Source: B21-G16 sp003644825 [NCBI: Candidatus Zhuqueibacterota bacterium] (GTDB lineage Bacteria; SM23-31; B21-G16). Taken from it: a stretch of DNA of 6,553 nucleotides. How positions within the stretch are numbered: position 1 is the first letter of the stretch; the number at the start of each line of letters is the position of its first letter. The DNA lies in assembly GCA_003644825.1 (NCBI GenBank), contig QNDJ01000096.1, positions 1-6,553 on the forward strand. Direction: 5' to 3'. Positions 42-6,494 of this stretch are shown one piece after another. The notes beneath the pieces are model-generated. The model was not told the DNA's origin. It searched no databases and saw only the letters and a list, made by a program, of their open reading frames with translations. A program made the position numbers and the translations under genes.

Positions 42-1730
42 ATGAATATAATTTTTAATGCGGGCAGATTTAAGCCCAAAAAGCTTATATATCTGTCCTT
101 ATTTGTTTTAATACCTTCCTTAACAGTTTATTCTCAGCAATTTGGAGGTGTTTATGCAATTAAGGGTGGTATAATTGTTAAGGGAACAGGAGAAAAAATT
201 GAAAACGGGATTGTTTTAATCAGGGATGGACTGATAGAGGCAGTTGGCAAATATATTCAGATTCCTGAGGATGCAGAAATTATCAATGCAGAGTCGTTGT
301 ATGTTTATCCGGGGTTAATAGATGCTCATACGAACATTGCGATTCCCAGAAAAAAACCTGAAGTAAGACGAACTCAGGCAGGAAGAACTACTCCACGAGA
401 ACCTGAACCTGCGTTTACTCCAGAAAAAAAGGCTGTAGACCTCATTAAAGCTGATAATAAATCCCTGAAAAAGATAGTAGAAAGTGGTGTTACGACTGCA
501 TTAACGGTTAATCCGACTGGAGTATTTCCAGGAACAAGTGCTTTGATTAACCTTCGGGGTGAAACACCTGGAGAAATGATTGTAAAGCCTCTGGTGGCAC
601 AGCATATCACTTATGCAATTCGGAGAGGAGCATATCCTTCTACTTTGATGGGTGTTGTTGCTTTTCAGCGTCAGACGTTTCTTGATTTGAAGCATTACAT
701 TGAATTGAAGAATATATCTAAGATTACAACACGAGGATGGAAAAGACCAGATTATGACGGAAAGCTGGAGGCTCTTATACCTGTTTTTGAAAATAATTTT
801 CCAGTTATTATCAATGCAATGAAAGAAAATGATATTATCAGGGCTGTTAAACTTGCAAGAGAATTTAATTTAAATTATATAATAAGTGGTGCAGTTGAGG
901 GATATAGAACTGTAGAATTATTAAAAAGGGAAGGTAAACCGGTATTGCTCAGCCTGGATTTTCCTGAACCTATGCAGGTAACGGGTTATTCGTTTGCCCT
1001 TAAAGTAAAACCACCTGAGGTTGAGAAAAAACCTTCTAAAGAAGAAGAGAAAAAGAAAGAAAAAGAAGATAAAGAATTCTGGGACCTTATTTATGGAAAT
1101 GCTGCAACATTATATCAAGCAGGAATAAAATTTGCATTTTGTTCTGCTCCAAAAAGTAAACCTGAAAAATTACTTGAAAATGTAAGAAAAACAGTTGAAC
1201 ATGGACTTCCGAAGGATGAAGCTTTGAAAGCCCTGACGGTTAATCCTGCTAAAATCTTTGGAGTTGAAGAAGAACTCGGTACTATTGAAGAGGGTAAAAT
1301 TGCCAATATTATTGTTTGTGATAAGGAAATTTTCGATAAAAAATGTAAGATGAGATATGTTTTTGTTGATGGAAAAAAGATTGAAATTGTGAAAAAACCT
1401 GAGAAGAAAAAGAAAGAAGAAACAGCAAAAGTGGATGTTTCTGGAGAATGGGATGTAGAAATTGAAACTCCAGATGGTATAATGTCTGCGACCTTAATTA
1501 TTAATCAATCGGGAAATGAATTCAGTGGAACATTCAGTTCGGAAATGGGGGATATCGAATTACAAAATGGAAAAATAAGCGGTAATGAAATTGAGTTTGT
1601 TGTAACTGCTGGTGGTATAGAGGCTACTTTTTCTGGAACTGTTAAAGGTAATGAAATTAATGGAACAGTTGATGCAGGTCCAATGGGGACAGTTACTTGG
1701 AAAGCAACCAAAAAACCAGGCTCAAAATAA
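42..1730 (+). CDS. Exported amidohydrolase-like pseudoenzyme with extra C-terminal beta domain
   Basis: This 562-residue protein has the amidohydrolase fold related to imidazolonepropionase-like metal-dependent hydrolases. A signal peptide is visible (basic KPKK at 12-14, hydrophobic core, likely cleavage after VYS at 29-31). Next come the N-terminal beta-sandwich (about 38-88) and the barrel entry PGLIDAHTN (90-98). The C-terminal family signature follows: GLPKDEALKALTVNPAKIFG at 388-407, then the EEGKIANIIV turn. The catalytic site is degraded. The HxH pair reads H96-T-N98, and the barrel lysine position is about I189. The two later histidine positions are N258 and G283, and the final aspartate position is A369. 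It is therefore unlikely to be a standard metal hydrolase. A Lys/Glu-rich insert (322-346) interrupts the barrel before the last strand, and a Lys-rich linker (451-463) leads to an extra beta-rich domain (465-557). It is the first gene of a three-paralog operon, 21 nt ahead of the intact enzyme, so a partner or scaffold role is inferred. The reading frame is intact, so it is not a pseudogene. Confidence 0.9.
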   Translation: MNIIFNAGRFKPKKLIYLSLFVLIPSLTVYSQQFGGVYAIKGGIIVKGTGEKIENGIVLIRDGLIEAVGKYIQIPEDAEIINAESLYVYPGLIDAHTNIAIPRKKPEVRRTQAGRTTPREPEPAFTPEKKAVDLIKADNKSLKKIVESGVTTALTVNPTGVFPGTSALINLRGETPGEMIVKPLVAQHITYAIRRGAYPSTLMGVVAFQRQTFLDLKHYIELKNISKITTRGWKRPDYDGKLEALIPVFENNFPVIINAMKENDIIRAVKLAREFNLNYIISGAVEGYRTVELLKREGKPVLLSLDFPEPMQVTGYSFALKVKPPEVEKKPSKEEEKKKEKEDKEFWDLIYGNAATLYQAGIKFAFCSAPKSKPEKLLENVRKTVEHGLPKDEALKALTVNPAKIFGVEEELGTIEEGKIANIIVCDKEIFDKKCKMRYVFVDGKKIEIVKKPEKKKKEETAKVDVSGEWDVEIETPDGIMSATLIINQSGNEFSGTFSSEMGDIELQNGKISGNEIEFVVTAGGIEATFSGTVKGNEINGTVDAGPMGTVTWKATKKPGSK

Positions 1731-1738
1731 ATTTTTAC

Positions 1739-1744
1739 GGGAGG
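1739..1744 (+). promoter_or_regulatory. Ribosome binding site of the active amidohydrolase gene
   Basis: GGGAGG sits 7 nt before the ATG at 1752. The protein begins Met-Met; the second ATG (1755) would have a 10-nt spacer, so the first ATG is favoured. The site lies wholly inside the 21-nt gap after the preceding stop codon. Confidence 0.85.
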
Positions 1745-1751
1745 ATAATTT

Positions 1752-3071
1752 ATGATGAAGAAAATGATATATTTATTGTTCCTTGCTTTGATTATCACCG
1801 GCATTGCTATTAATTGTGTATATGCTGGTGGGGATGTTTTTATAAAAAATGGAACAATATTAACAATAACAAAGGGGGTAATTAAAAACGGATGTATTTT
1901 AATACGTAATGGTAAAATAGTTGCTGTAGGAAAAGACCTCACGGCTCCTGAAGGTGTTCCTGTAATAGATGCTACGGGGTGTTATGTTATGCCGGGTATT
2001 ATTGATTCTCATTCCCATATGGGGATTGATAGGGGAATTAATGAAGCAACTTCGCAGGTAACTCCACAGGTGAATATTGAAGACGTAATAAGACATGATG
2101 ATTTAAGTTTTTATAGAGCTTTAGCTGGAGGGTGTACAGCTATTCAGAACCTCCACGGTAGTGCTAATGTGATTGGTGGAGAGAATGGAGTTCTTAAACT
2201 AAAGTTTGGGAAACCTGCTGAAGAACTTTTAATCCACGATGCGATGCAGGGTGTAAAGTTTGCCCTCGGTGAAAACCCAAAAAGAAGAGGAGCAGAGTCT
2301 AACAAATTTCCTGCATCGAGAACAGGTATCTCTCATATTCTTAGAGAAGCTTTTACACAGGCAAAAGAGTATATGAAGAAATGGGATGAATATGAAAAAG
2401 CAAAAAGAGGAGAAATTAAACCGCCAAATAAATGGGTTGCAAAGGTCTGGCCTATTCCACCTAAAAAAGATTTAAAAATGGAAGTTCTTGCCGATTTGTT
2501 AAAAGGAAAAAAGGGTATTGTTTGTCATTGTTATGAGGCACAGGAAATCGAAGATTTGTTTAAGGTATGTGATGAGTTTGGTGTAAAAGTATATTCTCTC
2601 GAACACTGTCTTGAAGGATATAAAGTTGCTGATATAATTGCAAAACACGGAACCGTTGCTTCTATATTTATGGATTTCTGGGCATATAAAGTTGAAGCTT
2701 TTGATGCTATACCTTATAATGCAGTGTTGTTAACAAGGAGGGGAGTTACTGTTACTGTTAATTCAGATAGTAATGAGAGGGTAAGAAGGTTATTTCAGGA
2801 AGCTGCAAAAGCTCTGAAATATGGAAATATGACTGAAAATGAAGCATTGAGAATGATAACAATAAATCCTGCTAAGGACCTTCATATAGATGATAGATGC
2901 GGTAGTATCGAGGTTGGAAAAGATGGTGATATTGCTATATTTGATGGTCATCCTTTATCTGTATATTCTAAAGTGGTCAAGACATTGATTGAAGGGGATG
3001 TTTATTTTGATTATGATAAAGCAATGACCGCTGAAAAGGTTCTGGCAAAATATAAGAAATCAACCCGGTAA
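1752..3071 (+). CDS. Exported metal-dependent amidohydrolase (imidazolonepropionase-like family), catalytically intact
   Basis: This 439-residue protein is an amidohydrolase of the HutI-related group, which hydrolyses C-N bonds in cyclic or linear amides; the actual substrate is not readable. A signal peptide occupies residues 1-25 (MMKK, hydrophobic core, VYA cleavage site), so it acts outside the cytoplasm. Domains in order are an N-terminal beta-sandwich (about 28-78), the TIM-like barrel (79-375), and a C-terminal return to the sandwich with GSIEVGKDGDIAIFDG (384-399). All expected metal ligands are present: H87 and H89 in IDSHSH, the barrel lysine K169 (probably carboxylated) in KFALGENPKR, H259 in VCHCYE, H285 in LEHCLEGYK, and D339 in NSDSN. 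The segment HGSANVIGG (135-143) and the GENPKR motif are typical of a widespread subfamily of about 400 residues, usually annotated only as amidohydrolase. It is the middle gene of the operon, between two paralogs that lack these ligands, and is probably the only catalytic member. Confidence 0.93.
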   Translation: MMKKMIYLLFLALIITGIAINCVYAGGDVFIKNGTILTITKGVIKNGCILIRNGKIVAVGKDLTAPEGVPVIDATGCYVMPGIIDSHSHMGIDRGINEATSQVTPQVNIEDVIRHDDLSFYRALAGGCTAIQNLHGSANVIGGENGVLKLKFGKPAEELLIHDAMQGVKFALGENPKRRGAESNKFPASRTGISHILREAFTQAKEYMKKWDEYEKAKRGEIKPPNKWVAKVWPIPPKKDLKMEVLADLLKGKKGIVCHCYEAQEIEDLFKVCDEFGVKVYSLEHCLEGYKVADIIAKHGTVASIFMDFWAYKVEAFDAIPYNAVLLTRRGVTVTVNSDSNERVRRLFQEAAKALKYGNMTENEALRMITINPAKDLHIDDRCGSIEVGKDGDIAIFDGHPLSVYSKVVKTLIEGDVYFDYDKAMTAEKVLAKYKKSTR

Positions 3072-3080
3072 AATTATCAG

Positions 3081-3087
3081 GGAGGTG
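3081..3087 (+). promoter_or_regulatory. Ribosome binding site of the third amidohydrolase-like gene
   Basis: GGAGGTG is a very strong match to the 16S anti-Shine-Dalgarno sequence, 5 nt before the ATG at 3093. It lies in the second 21-nt intergenic gap of the operon and supports the chosen start, which directly yields a short MKK-type signal peptide. Confidence 0.88.
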
Positions 3088-3092
3088 TTCTG

Positions 3093-4388
3093 ATGAAAAA
3101 AATATCTATTTTTATAATAATTTTCATACTTATGTATGGTTTTATTTATGCTGGAGACCACCAGGGGAAATATGTTATTAAGAATGCAACAATTGTAACT
3201 GTTACAGGGCCAATTATAGAAAAAGGAGCTGTTATTATAGATGGAAATAAAATTACGTATGTAGGTAGGTTTCCAAGTATTCCGGAAGGAGCTGAAGTAA
3301 TAGATGCAGAAGGTTTGTATGTATACCCAGGTATGATTAACTCATATACAACTCTTGGTTTGACAGAAATAGGCTCAGTAAGAGAAACAAATGATGCACG
3401 AGAAGTAGGTGATTTTAATACATTTATAAAGGCTTCCAGTGCTATTAATCCAAGTTCTGTTCATATTCCAATAACAAGAGTAAATGGAATAACAACAGCA
3501 TTAACAGTACCTCAGGGTAGTTTAATTTGTGGATATGGAGCATTAATCAACCTTTATGGCTGGACTATTGAAGAAATGATTTTAGAGGATAAAGCTGTAA
3601 TGGTAGTGAATTTTCCAAGAAGTACGCCTTTTGCTTATTTTAGAGAACCCACTAAAGAGGAAAAGAAAAAAGCAGCCGAAAAAGCAAAAAAACAGATTGA
3701 AAAAATGGAAAATCTTTTTGAAAAAGCAAGATTATATTATAAAGCTAAAAAAAGTTATGAAGCTGGTGAACTGAAAACTCCTCCACCTGTTGATATGACT
3801 CTTGATGCTTTAATTCCTGTTATTAAAGGCGAGGTTCCGCTTCTTATAGGTGTTTCAAATGAGAAAGATATTAAAGAAGCTGTAAAGGTTGTGAATAATG
3901 TTAAGGTTAAAGCAATCTTTACCGGCGTCAACGATGGATGGAAAGTTGCAGATTTACTTGCTAAAAACAAAATTCCATGTTTGGTTGGGTCGGTATTGTC
4001 TGTTCCCGGTAATAAAGACCCCTTTGATGCAGGTTATGCAAATGCTGGTATTCTTAATAAGGCAGGTGTTAAAATTGCATTTGTTACCGGTGGTGCATCA
4101 GATGCAAGAAATCTACCTTATCATGCTGGGATGTCCGCTGCTTATGGATTACCCAGGGATGAAGCGCTGAAAGCAGTTACCATATATCCTGCTCAAATTT
4201 TCGGCGTTGATGATAAGATTGGCAGTATAGAAGTGGGTAAAATTGCCAATATTGTGGTAACAGATGATGATATCCTTGAAATGAGAACCCATATCAAATA
4301 TCTTTTCATTAATGGGAAAAATGTTCCTTTGAAATCCAAACATACAGAACTGTATGAAAAATATAAGAAAAAATACGGTATTAAATAG
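3093..4388 (+). CDS. Exported amidohydrolase-like pseudoenzyme lacking all metal ligands
   Basis: This 431-residue paralog of the two preceding proteins starts with a signal peptide (MKK, hydrophobic core, IYA cleavage after residue 20). The beta-sandwich (about 25-77) and C-terminal signature are well kept: GLPRDEALKAVTIYPAQIFG at 352-371 and SIEVGKIANIVV at 378-389. The active site is erased. The usual IDxHxH reads I82-N-S-Y85-T-T87, and the barrel lysine position is about V172. The later histidine positions are G253 and G278, and the final aspartate position is G333 within VTGGASDAR. A charged helical insert (about 186-222, KEEKKKAAEKAKK...) is followed by ELKTPP, which lines up with a similar helix and PP pair in the middle protein, confirming common descent. 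The frame is open, the ribosome binding site is strong and the signal peptide is intact, so it appears to be a maintained non-catalytic protein. A role as partner subunit of the intact enzyme is inferred. Its closing KKKYGIK tail is unremarkable. Confidence 0.9.
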   Translation: MKKISIFIIIFILMYGFIYAGDHQGKYVIKNATIVTVTGPIIEKGAVIIDGNKITYVGRFPSIPEGAEVIDAEGLYVYPGMINSYTTLGLTEIGSVRETNDAREVGDFNTFIKASSAINPSSVHIPITRVNGITTALTVPQGSLICGYGALINLYGWTIEEMILEDKAVMVVNFPRSTPFAYFREPTKEEKKKAAEKAKKQIEKMENLFEKARLYYKAKKSYEAGELKTPPPVDMTLDALIPVIKGEVPLLIGVSNEKDIKEAVKVVNNVKVKAIFTGVNDGWKVADLLAKNKIPCLVGSVLSVPGNKDPFDAGYANAGILNKAGVKIAFVTGGASDARNLPYHAGMSAAYGLPRDEALKAVTIYPAQIFGVDDKIGSIEVGKIANIVVTDDDILEMRTHIKYLFINGKNVPLKSKHTELYEKYKKKYGIK

Positions 4389-4784: not shown

Positions 4785-6494
4785 GTGGTTAAAATTAAAC
4801 TATTAATTTTACTTTTTATAATATTTTTAGTTAAAACATCTTTTTCTCAGGAACAGTGGGTAAGTTATACAAATGCAAATAGAAGAATAAATGCTTTAGA
4901 ATTTGAGGGTGATATTCTCTGGGCAGGAACAGCAGGGGGTATTGTAGAATGGGATGTGAAAGATGGAACATATATTAAATATACAGTTAATGATGGTCTG
5001 GCAGGCAATTATATACGAGCAATAGCTGTAGATTCTAGTGGAAACAAATGGATCGCAACAGCTAAAGGAGTCTGTAAATTTGATGGTAAATACTGGATTA
5101 CATATACAAAAGATAATGGACTGGCAAGCAATAATGTGCGTGCAATAACTATAGATTTTGATGGAAATATATGGTTTGCAACAGGTGAAGGAGTAAATAA
5201 ATTTGATGGAAATAACTGGACTACTTATACAGAAGATGATGGTTTATTATTTCGAGATGTGCGCTCAATTGCTGTTGATCTGGAAGGAAATATATGGTGT
5301 GGCTCGTTGAAAGGGGTCAATAAATTTGATGGATTCAACTGGGTTTCATATTCTAAAAGGTGGCTTACATTTATAAATTCAATTTCAATGGACCACAGTG
5401 GTAATATATGGTTTGGAGGTGTTCTTGGAGTGAGTAAATTTGATGGAAATAGCTGGACTACTTATACTGAAGATGATGGTTTAGCAGGTAATTGGGTAAC
5501 TTCCATAGCTGTAGATTTAGAAGGTAATTTATGGTTTGGAACATTATTTGGAGTAAGTAAATTTGATGGAATTAATTGGACTACATATACAACTGAAGAT
5601 GGACTGATTAGTAATTATGTATATTCAATAACTGTGGGTCGAGCTAAAAATATATGGTTTGGAACCTGGGATGGAATTAGTAAGTTTGATGGAAAAAACT
5701 GGATAACATATAAAACCAATGATGTTTTAATTGGTAATAAGGTATATTCAGTAGCTACAGATTCAAAAGGAAATGTATGGTTCGGGACTTCAAGTGGAGT
5801 AAACAAATTTGATGGGAAGAAATGGAATGTATACACAACGAGTAAAGGATTGGTAGATAATTTTGTATATTCAATAGCTTTGGATTATAGAGATAATATT
5901 TGGTTTGGAACATCAGGAGGAGTTAGTAAATTTGATGGTACTCATTGGATTTCTTATACAAAGGGTGATGGTTTAGTAGATAACATTGTGTATTCAATAA
6001 CAATGGATTTAAATGGAAATATATGGTTTGGAACAAAACACGGAGTTAGTAGATTAAGTGGAATAAGCTGGACTACATATACAACTGATAATGGGTTGAT
6101 TAATAACAGTGTTAATTCAATAACTTCAGATTTAGAGGGTAATATATGGTTTGCAACAGAAGGAGGTGTTAGCTGCCTTAAAAGATTTGACTATCATAAA
6201 GTAAATGAAAAAAGAAGCTTTATTTTATCCCATAATTATCCCAATCCATTTAACAGTGAAACTATTATAAGATATAATGTATTAGTTTCTTCTGTTATTA
6301 ATTTAAAAATATACAATGTTGCTGGACAGGAGGTAAGAAATCTCTTTAACAGAATGATGATACCAGGAAACTACATAGTAAAATGGGATGGAACAAATAA
6401 TCAGGGCATAAAAGTTCCTTCTGGTATATATTTTTACACGATGAAAACCAGAAATAACTATATTAAAACGAGAAAGATGACTTTAATTAAATAA
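4785..6494 (+). CDS. Secreted Reg_prop beta-propeller protein with type IX-like C-terminal sorting domain
   Basis: This 569-residue protein has a signal peptide (VKIK, hydrophobic core, likely cleavage after SFS at 19-21). About eleven propeller blades of the two-component-regulator type (Reg_prop) follow, from residue 25 to about 465. The consensus is I-x-x-D-x-x-G-N-I-W-F-G-T-x-x-G-V-S-K-F-D-G-x-x-W-T-T-Y-T, then DGL-x-x-N-x-V-x-S. The tail (478-569) is a FlgD-like immunoglobulin-fold sorting domain, with NYPNPFN at 484-490, IYNVAGQEV at 509-517, WDG at 534-536, SGIYFY at 546-551 and terminal RKMTLIK. Such tails direct proteins across the outer membrane by the type IX system in Bacteroidota, and occur in several candidate phyla. 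Reg_prop blades are best known as sensor domains of hybrid histidine kinases; here there is no transmembrane helix or kinase after them, so a surface-binding role is inferred and the ligand is unknown. The start is GTG at 4785, the only usual start codon after the in-frame stop at 4749, and no clear Shine-Dalgarno precedes it. Confidence 0.88.
   Translation: MVKIKLLILLFIIFLVKTSFSQEQWVSYTNANRRINALEFEGDILWAGTAGGIVEWDVKDGTYIKYTVNDGLAGNYIRAIAVDSSGNKWIATAKGVCKFDGKYWITYTKDNGLASNNVRAITIDFDGNIWFATGEGVNKFDGNNWTTYTEDDGLLFRDVRSIAVDLEGNIWCGSLKGVNKFDGFNWVSYSKRWLTFINSISMDHSGNIWFGGVLGVSKFDGNSWTTYTEDDGLAGNWVTSIAVDLEGNLWFGTLFGVSKFDGINWTTYTTEDGLISNYVYSITVGRAKNIWFGTWDGISKFDGKNWITYKTNDVLIGNKVYSVATDSKGNVWFGTSSGVNKFDGKKWNVYTTSKGLVDNFVYSIALDYRDNIWFGTSGGVSKFDGTHWISYTKGDGLVDNIVYSITMDLNGNIWFGTKHGVSRLSGISWTTYTTDNGLINNSVNSITSDLEGNIWFATEGGVSCLKRFDYHKVNEKRSFILSHNYPNPFNSETIIRYNVLVSSVINLKIYNVAGQEVRNLFNRMMIPGNYIVKWDGTNNQGIKVPSGIYFYTMKTRNNYIKTRKMTLIK
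5022..6119 (+). repeat. Tandem 123-nt coding repeats encoding 41-residue propeller blades
   Basis: Nine successive units fill residues 80-445 of the propeller protein: 80-120, 121-161, 162-199, 200-240, 241-281, 282-322, 323-363, 364-404 and 405-445. All are 41 residues (123 nt) except the third, which is 38. A divergent unit precedes them (about 35-79) and a partial one follows (446-465). The repeat is also visible in the DNA: AARTTTGATGG (R is A or G) recurs in eight of the nine units and ATATGGTTTGG recurs in several. The third unit has KRWLTF in place of the GL-x-x-N turn, and the ninth has RLSG in place of KFDG. Confidence 0.9.

What the first reader, a model, noticed from the sequence alone, without database searches (positions are those of the whole stretch)
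42..4388. Pseudoenzyme - enzyme - pseudoenzyme operon of three exported amidohydrolase paralogs
Seen: three paralogs in one operon with identical 21-nt gaps and strong ribosome binding sites, all with signal peptides. Only the middle one keeps the full ligand set (H87, H89, K169, H259, H285, D339). The first keeps a single ligand (H96) and the third keeps none, while both keep the fold signatures, e.g. the EGY/DGW motif just after the lost sixth-strand histidine and the DEALKA-T-x-x-PA segment. Known: inactive dihydroorotase paralogs in the same superfamily are needed to assemble some bacterial aspartate transcarbamoylases. Inference: the two dead paralogs form a hetero-oligomer with, or hand substrate to, the live one in the periplasm. 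Retention of two separate degenerate copies flanking an intact one suggests a selected three-part system rather than decay.
Basis: partly seen in the sequence, partly recalled or inferred. Interest (0 to 1): 0.68.

Follow-up and report, generated by a model that had tools for sequence, protein, structure and literature searches.

The report
One live amidohydrolase, two dead partners
Three neighbouring genes encode apparently exported sister proteins of which only the middle one looks able to be an enzyme; the same live-plus-dead set recurs in many distant bacteria, often fused into one protein, so the dead copies appear to be working parts of one machine.

Summary
ORF1 (T1), ORF2 (T2) and ORF3 (T3) are paralogous, apparently exported amidohydrolases; only T2 keeps the metal ligands HHKHHD. 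In 287 domains from related loci, T2 keeps all six in 108 of 109 (the other is incomplete), T1 in 0 of 59, well-separated T3 in 0 of 92. Neighbouring types stand in the order T1-T2-T3. They also occur fused: [T1-T2], [T2-T3] and [T1-T2-T3]. T3 accompanies T2 in 31 of 31 and 32 of 32 genomes of two phylum samples, whereas T1 is often absent. The dead copies are under purifying selection (median dN/dS 0.12, 0.11, 0.13 for T1, T2, T3). AlphaFold2 predicts packed halves in both fusions modelled (pTM 0.81 and 0.85). Best reading: an exported hetero-oligomeric amidohydrolase with one catalytic and one or two non-catalytic paralogous parts, comparable in logic to M16 peptidases and to the pseudo-dihydroorotase of some ATCases. 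Physical association, substrate and the role of T1 remain inferred. I found no description in the open library searched.

The parts
42..1730 (+). T1: apparently exported pseudo-amidohydrolase (562 aa), metal ligands lost except H96, with a C-terminal beta extension
1431..1727 (+). C-terminal extension of T1 (about 99 aa); the homologous part of the AlphaFold2 model has eight strands
   Evidence: sequence; (no Pfam match)
1731..1751 (+). 21-nt gap with GGGAGG ribosome-binding site before T2
1752..3071 (+). T2: apparently exported catalytic amidohydrolase (439 aa), all six ligands intact
2010..2018 (+). T2 H87 and H89 (HxH, strand 1)
2256..2258 (+). T2 K169 (bridging, presumably carboxylated lysine)
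   Evidence: carboxylation inferred from the family
2526..2528 (+). T2 H259 (strand 5)
2604..2606 (+). T2 H285 (strand 6)
2766..2768 (+). T2 D339 (strand 8, general acid/base)
   Evidence: role inferred from the superfamily
3072..3092 (+). 21-nt gap with GGGAGGTG ribosome-binding site before T3
3093..4388 (+). T3: apparently exported pseudo-amidohydrolase (431 aa), no ligand kept; the near-obligate partner of T2

Best explanation
The three genes encode the parts of one exported hetero-oligomeric metallo-amidohydrolase. T2 is the catalytic part, with a binuclear-type site (H87, H89, K169, H259, H285, D339), probably a dipeptidase, carboxypeptidase or N-acyl-amino-acid hydrolase of the COG1228 kind (COG label recalled). 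T3 is a catalytically dead paralog that takes the place of a second subunit next to T2. T1 is a further dead paralog, probably derived from the T3 side, with an extra beta domain. The dead parts most likely complete or stabilise the assembly and shape or gate access to the T2 site. Shown here by computation: ligand pattern, order, linkage or fusion, co-occurrence of T2 and T3, purifying selection, and that T1 and T2 are each one group on the tree. Inferred: physical association, stoichiometry, cell compartment, substrate and the exact duty of T1 and T3.
For: Ligands kept in T2 108 of 109, T1 0 of 59, T3 (strong) 0 of 92; in T1 and T3 five of the six former ligand columns lie among the variable columns (59th-99th percentile of entropy), while the strand-6 His became mostly Gly (T1 41 of 50, T3 80 of 93). 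All joins occur naturally: [T1-T2], [T2-T3] and ten [T1-T2-T3] chains of 1265-1502 aa, two of them cut by contig ends. Separate neighbours are tightly spaced: T2|T3 within 50 nt or overlapping in 55 of 56, T1|T2 in 19 of 19 (ORF starts are the first possible ones, so overlaps are overcounted). T2-T3 co-occurrence 31 of 31 and 32 of 32 genomes (26 and 52). Median dN/dS 0.117 (T1, 10 of 13 pairs used), 0.110 (T2, 17 of 20), 0.134 (T3, 18 of 20). Tree: T1 and T2 each fall on one side of a branch with SH-aLRT 99. AlphaFold2 of natural fusions: T1-T2 1032 aa pLDDT 84.3, pTM 0.81; T2-T3 885 aa pLDDT 82.1, pTM 0.85. If the two halves were placed at random, pTM near 0.52 would be expected (simple arithmetic).
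Against: No measured interaction, and no inter-domain error matrix or coordinates were available, so the interface is not seen. Fusion and operon linkage also fit proteins that merely act on the same substrate. AlphaFold2 may pack homologous tandem domains in a remembered dimer arrangement; no control fusion was run. In G061, T3 lies on another contig than T1-T2. T1 is absent from many T2-T3 genomes. T3 of genus g241 evolves faster than T2 (dN/dS 0.33-0.54 against 0.18-0.24), and one T3 pair of g122 reaches 0.34. T3 needs two changes on the tree, so a single origin is not shown. One genome (G134) has a second T3 beside only a fragment of T2.
Confidence: 0.75

Rival explanations
1. The dead paralogs do not assemble with T2 but act as exported binding proteins for the same substrate (capture or delivery), kept in the operon for co-regulation.
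For: Operon linkage and apparent export of all parts; unlinked T3 in G061; the extra beta domain of T1 could bind something.
Against: Fusions of T1-T2, T2-T3 and all three, and high pTM of the fusions; no conserved polar set at the former active-site positions of T3.
Confidence: 0.15
2. T1 and T3 are enzymes with a changed active site (neofunctionalised, other metal set or metal-free), so that the operon encodes three different activities.
For: The T3 half of a fusion model matches several amidohydrolases (VIA-align Z about 25, rmsd 3.3-4.0, 300-320 residues aligned). Some polar residues are conserved above 85% in T3 (E92, D101, S122, R129, Y215, T363, D393) and in T1 (such as Y198, R210, Q211, D215, R267, E274).
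Against: Five of the six ligand columns vary freely and the conserved polar residues do not stand at these positions. Some (Y215 in T3; R210 and D215 in T1) sit in the segment equivalent to T2 198-207, part of which (R198, Y207) is conserved in T2 too. A new catalytic set elsewhere in the barrel is not excluded.
Confidence: 0.07
3. Ordinary decay after tandem duplication; the dead copies are relics.
For: A copy split over several frames exists on a Hymenobacter volaticus plasmid, and dN is somewhat higher in T1 and T3 than in T2 (median ratios 1.62 and 1.34).
Against: T2 with T3 in 39 of 386 sampled genomes from 31 families, purifying selection, T1 and T2 each one group on the tree, in-frame fusions.
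Confidence: 0.03

Closest known systems
Amidohydrolases of the COG1228 kind with a Lys ligand (COG label recalled): PDB 3ooq of Thermotoga maritima, uncharacterised; prolidase 3n2c; arginine carboxypeptidases 3be7, 3mtw
   Same: T2 has the same fold and the HxH, K, H, H, D set; 3ooq is the best sequence match of T2 (E 2.7e-58) and of T3 (2e-35) and the best fold match
   Different: 3ooq is one sequence in ten chains, no dead partner is named. T2 is apparently exported, forms its own group on the tree and comes with dead paralogs
Pseudo-dihydroorotase of Pseudomonas aeruginosa aspartate transcarbamoylase (PMC7053772, abstract and outline read)
   Same: An inactive amidohydrolase-fold chain is needed for an active partner and assembles with it
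   Different: There the partner is an unrelated transferase; here the live partner is itself an amidohydrolase paralog in the same operon or chain
M16 metallopeptidases (PMC12731061, start of the abstract seen in the listing)
   Same: Two halves, active-site residues typically in one half only, both needed. That they occur both as separate subunits and as one chain is recalled
   Different: Unrelated fold; here up to two dead parts per live part
CRMP/DPYSL proteins (listing)
   Same: Dihydropyrimidinase relatives; that they are inactive and form mixed tetramers is recalled
   Different: Eukaryotic, cytosolic, not an operon with a live paralog

Membership tests
Amidohydrolase superfamily (Pfam Amidohydro_1) | Sequence match above the curated cut-off | tested here: met
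   T1 59.6, T2 66.7, T3 53.9 bits against a cut-off of 25
Catalytically competent binuclear amidohydrolase (HxH, K, H, H, D) | All six metal ligands, ORF2 (T2) | tested here: met
   ORF2 HHKHHD; T2 group 108 of 109, one incomplete
Catalytically competent binuclear amidohydrolase (HxH, K, H, H, D) | All six metal ligands, ORF1 and ORF3 (T1, T3) | tested here: not met
   ORF1 HNHNGA, ORF3 YTVGGG; T1 0 of 59, strong T3 0 of 92
COG1228 prolidase/carboxypeptidase | Cleavage of Xaa-Pro or Xaa-Arg/Lys | not testable with these tools
   needs an assay; only fold and ligand kinship shown
Pseudo-DHO/ATCase system | An aspartate transcarbamoylase partner gene next to the dead paralog | tested here: inconclusive
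   none among the window ORFs of 80 aa or more, but the contig begins 41 bases before T1; no neighbour cluster spans more than 11 of 115 loci, and the neighbours were not annotated
Named NCBIfam families | Score above the family cut-off | tested here: not met
   best hits of T1-T3 far below cut-offs (e.g. nagA 55.9 of 225.65) among the 25 best families listed per protein
Obligate live-plus-dead hetero-oligomer | Physical complex | not testable with these tools
   indirect only: natural fusions, pTM 0.81 and 0.85

The most novel reading that the evidence does not exclude
A widespread, unnamed class of exported asymmetric amidohydrolases in which one live barrel works only inside a fixed assembly with one obligate dead barrel (T3) and, in many lineages, a second dead barrel with a beta cap (T1): the amidohydrolase counterpart of M16 peptidases. 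The dead barrels build the substrate chamber and set specificity for larger substrates.
Probability: 0.45. Interest if true: 0.75.

Novelty: new variant of a known kind. Interest (0 to 1): 0.62.

Why it matters
By family match all three proteins would be called amidohydrolases, as two such neighbours are on the Qipengyuania plasmid. The comparison indicates that in this group only one in two or three is an enzyme and that the unit of function is the set. It would explain why recombinant single members may be inactive, offers natural one-chain fusions for structure work, and gives a clean case for how dead paralogs become parts of an enzyme.

Tried and rejected
Decay of T1 and T3: rejected by dN/dS and persistence. 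T2 alone in relatives: looked for; the three solitary matches G032, G423 and G551 score lower on T2 (about 306-355 bits) with a smaller lead over T3 (about 58-65), and no second amidohydrolase was seen in the stretches fetched around them (the G423 gene lies at the contig end, the G032 one near it). Only G032 of the three was in the tree, where it joins the solitary enzymes at support 81. T1 hidden elsewhere in genomes without a seen T1: 35 searched with the T1 profile gave only T2/T3 places, the other pair of G273 and the second T3 copy of G134. Substrate from neighbours: largest cluster in 11 of 115 loci, mostly close relatives (ORF calling was crude and GC-rich loci gave spurious frames). 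The Qipengyuania pair stands behind a peptide transporter, one case only. Export: the hydropathy count (53 of 55, 60 of 62, 60 of 61 for proteins beginning with T1, T2, T3) is lax, since 19 of 25 unclassified ones also pass; a stricter look at nine N-termini separates the window ORFs (2.25-3.02) from six relatives outside the set (0.84-1.84). Other amidohydrolases of the same genome: eight more of other subfamilies; a strict HxH pattern was seen in four and the alignment to T2 was too weak to read the rest, so no conclusion. Named taxa: the genome-contig scan found only weak, other amidohydrolases. The phylum of the window could not be named. Interface and position of T1 relative to T3: no coordinates available. 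The fold-search rows do not cover the T1 half, so its fold rests on sequence and on the pLDDT of the model. The beta extension of T1 was not searched alone. Rows left out of counts: domains of 250 residues or fewer and dN/dS pairs with dS outside 0.05-2.5.
Full report
What was checked. The window is the whole of contig C96 (6553 bases) of a fragmented, 83.6% complete genome assembly, so the operon could extend upstream of base 1. ORFs 42-1730, 1752-3071 and 3093-4388 lie on the + strand with two gaps of 21 nt and clear ribosome-binding sites. Each matches the Pfam amidohydrolase models, none matches an NCBIfam family at its cut-off among the 25 best listed per protein, and ORF2 and ORF3 are 29% and 35% identical to ORF1. 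I call them T1, T2 and T3.

Ligands. Aligned with 30 relatives, T2 has H87, H89, K169, H259, H285 and D339; T1 reads H-N-H-N-G-A and T3 Y-T-V-G-G-G at these columns. T1 carries about 99 further residues, which in a homologous model form eight strands.

Relatives. A search with T3 in 60 genomes found matches in 15. Profiles of the three types were then built (T3 9 rows, T1 8 rows, T2 10 rows). The T3 profile at E 1e-15 or better hit 33 of 83 genomes in the phylum of G014, 28 of 121 in that of G009, 33 of 97 in that of G033, 2 of 2 in that of G011 and 2 of 8 in that of G058. At that threshold the T3 profile also reports T1, T2 and solitary relatives, so these are upper bounds. Ninety-nine stretches were fetched besides sixteen earlier ones, and open frames of 120 aa or more were scored against the three profiles.

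Architecture. Counting loci by their best-scoring domains: [T1-T2] [T3] 28 loci (in one, L153, part of T3 is still attached and the frame is split); separate [T2] [T3] 24; [T2-T3] 15; [T1] [T2-T3] 13 and one more with a split T1 (L133); [T1-T2-T3] 9 and one more in which T3 is scored in two stretches (L152); [T1] [T2] [T3] 3 including the window; one with T2 doubled (L049). Three of the 24 [T2] [T3] loci (L129, L157, L158) are pairs of another group, and some others (such as L047, L071) begin at a contig end where a T1 could be cut off. One locus listed as [T3] [T2] (L113) comes from overlapping frames, and its domain coordinates give T2 before T3. The remaining loci are solitary, truncated or arrays. 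Among neighbours of the main types the order is T1, T2, T3. Separate T2 and T3 frames are within 50 nt or overlap in 55 of 56 cases and T1 and T2 in 19 of 19; exact 4-nt overlaps are the commonest value. Starts were taken as the first possible start codon, so larger overlaps are partly artefacts. Twenty further regions, most from a broad sample, show the same architectures, including another one-chain triple (L170), with one region masked.

Pattern of loss. Of 287 domains, T2 keeps all six ligands in 108 of 109 (the remaining one is incomplete), T1 in 0 of 59 (53 keep none, 6 keep one), and T3 with a score margin above 100 in 0 of 92 (66 none, 24 one, 2 two). The T2 count includes nine weakly assigned rows, some of them solitary enzymes. 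Of 27 weakly assigned T3 domains, 2 are intact: these stand alone in their stretches (L126, L151); others of the 27, from arrays, keep up to five. In T1 and T3 five of the six former ligand columns are at the 59th to 99th percentile of column entropy; the strand-6 His became Gly in 41 of 50 T1 rows and 80 of 93 T3 rows. So the active sites were given up, whereas glycines, the Y198-P199 and R210-Q211-D215 residues of T1, and E92 and D101 of T3 are held.

Co-occurrence. T2 (E 1e-90 or better) is in 31 of 83 genomes of the G014 phylum, and all 31 have a T3. Two more genomes match the T3 profile there: G083 has T3 at the start of one contig and T1 at the end of another, so T2 fell in a gap; G096 has T1-T2 cut by a contig end and no T3 seen. 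T2 is in 32 of 97 of the G033 phylum, and all 32 have T3. In a broad sample of 386 genomes, 43 match T2: 3 are solitary enzymes (G032, G423, G551), 1 (G504) has a masked stretch where the rest of T2 and any T3 would lie, and 39 have T3. Of these 39, 38 reach 1e-60 with the T3 profile and G392 has a weak T3 seen only; G418 is also weak. The 39 come from 31 families by the tool's labels. These samples overlap and must not be added. In G061, T3 is on another contig than T1-T2, so co-presence survives loss of linkage. The T1 profile found no separate T1 in 35 genomes without a seen T1.

Selection. For 20 pairs of related genomes, Nei-Gojobori estimates (pairs with dS between 0.05 and 2.5 only: 10 of 13 for T1, 17 of 20 for T2, 18 of 20 for T3) give median dN/dS 0.117, 0.110 and 0.134. 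Relative to T2, dN is 1.62-fold (T1, 13 pairs) and 1.34-fold (T3, 20 pairs). The highest value, 0.54, is T3 in one genus.

Origin. In a quick maximum-likelihood tree of 120 domains, T2 (41 rows) and T1 (27 rows) are each one side of a branch (SH-aLRT 99). T3 (38 rows) needs two changes: 27 rows group next to T1 (91), and the 11 from T1-less genomes lie between these and a set (94) that holds T2, the solitary enzymes and the dead partners of other pairs. The simplest story is one early duplication of a live enzyme that gave a dead partner, then a second duplication of the dead line that gave T1. The root is at the midpoint and support at the deepest forks is 82-94, so this is a suggestion.

Structure. 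With the natural fusions as alignments (28 and 29 rows), AlphaFold2 gave pTM 0.81 for a T1-T2 chain of 1032 aa and 0.85 for a T2-T3 chain of 885 aa. Two rigid halves at random positions would give about 0.52 and a mutual error near 5 Angstrom about 0.86 (arithmetic), so both pairs are predicted to be packed. The T2 halves match 3ooq (Z 48.7, rmsd 2.0, 374 aligned; and Z 43.6, rmsd 2.1, 371 aligned), and the T3 half matches several amidohydrolases near Z 25. No coordinates or error matrices were available, so whether T1 and T3 use different faces of T2 is open.

Named carriers. Hymenobacter volaticus (plasmid NZ_CP095062.1) has T1-T2 and T3 split into several frames, either a broken copy or sequencing errors. 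Novosphingobium resinovorum (plasmid) has T2 with HHKHHD followed by a T3 reading AQFVGV; Qipengyuania citrea (plasmid) has a T2-like and a T3-like gene in that order, ligands not read.

Literature. Searches of the open PMC library for dead amidohydrolases, tandem amidohydrolases and COG1228 pseudoenzymes listed no description of this set. One 2026 preprint on metal-dependent bile salt hydrolases (PMC13081902; abstract and six passages read) has no occurrence of 'inactive', 'heterodimer' or 'paralog' in its main text. The pseudo-dihydroorotase precedent is real (PMC7053772, abstract), and M16 peptidases give the closest working analogy (PMC12731061, start of abstract in listing). Most subscription papers are not held, so absence from print is not shown.

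Verdict. Observation confirmed; the interpretation as a selected multi-part system is well supported by comparison, with T3 as the constant partner and T1 as an addition; physical assembly is likely but inferred.

Noticed in passing
L131 (G254:C2, 30-48 kb), L155 (G195:C529), L154 (G187:C263): Tandem arrays of about 3 to 9 amidohydrolase paralogs, with a few intact ligand sets among many degenerate ones: possibly larger live-plus-dead assemblies.
   Followed up: partly
L129, L157, L158, L159, L054: Further pairs of one intact and one dead amidohydrolase outside the main T2/T3 groups, which suggests that the arrangement may have arisen more than once.
   Followed up: partly
window 4785-6494: Protein with nine Reg_prop propeller stretches and a C-terminal FlgD_ig match; it also passes the cut-off of the T9SS sorting-domain model TIGR04183 (27.1 of 23). 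Same strand, about 400 nt downstream of T3.
   Followed up: no
L162 (Hymenobacter volaticus plasmid NZ_CP095062.1): The T1-T2 gene is split over four frames and T3 over two; broken copy or assembly frameshifts.
   Followed up: partly
L049 (G003:C34): T2 is doubled (T1, T2, T2, T3), both copies with intact ligands.
   Followed up: no
L196 6213-7932 (G134:C1): A second T3 copy with only a short end fragment of a T2 before it, apart from the main T2-T3 pair of the same genome.
   Followed up: partly
L093 and L094 (G061): T3 lies on another contig than T1-T2, yet both are kept.
   Followed up: partly
L191 4977-6656 (G000:C47): Another amidohydrolase-like protein of the same genome in which no HxH pattern was found; the alignment is too weak for a conclusion.
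   Followed up: no
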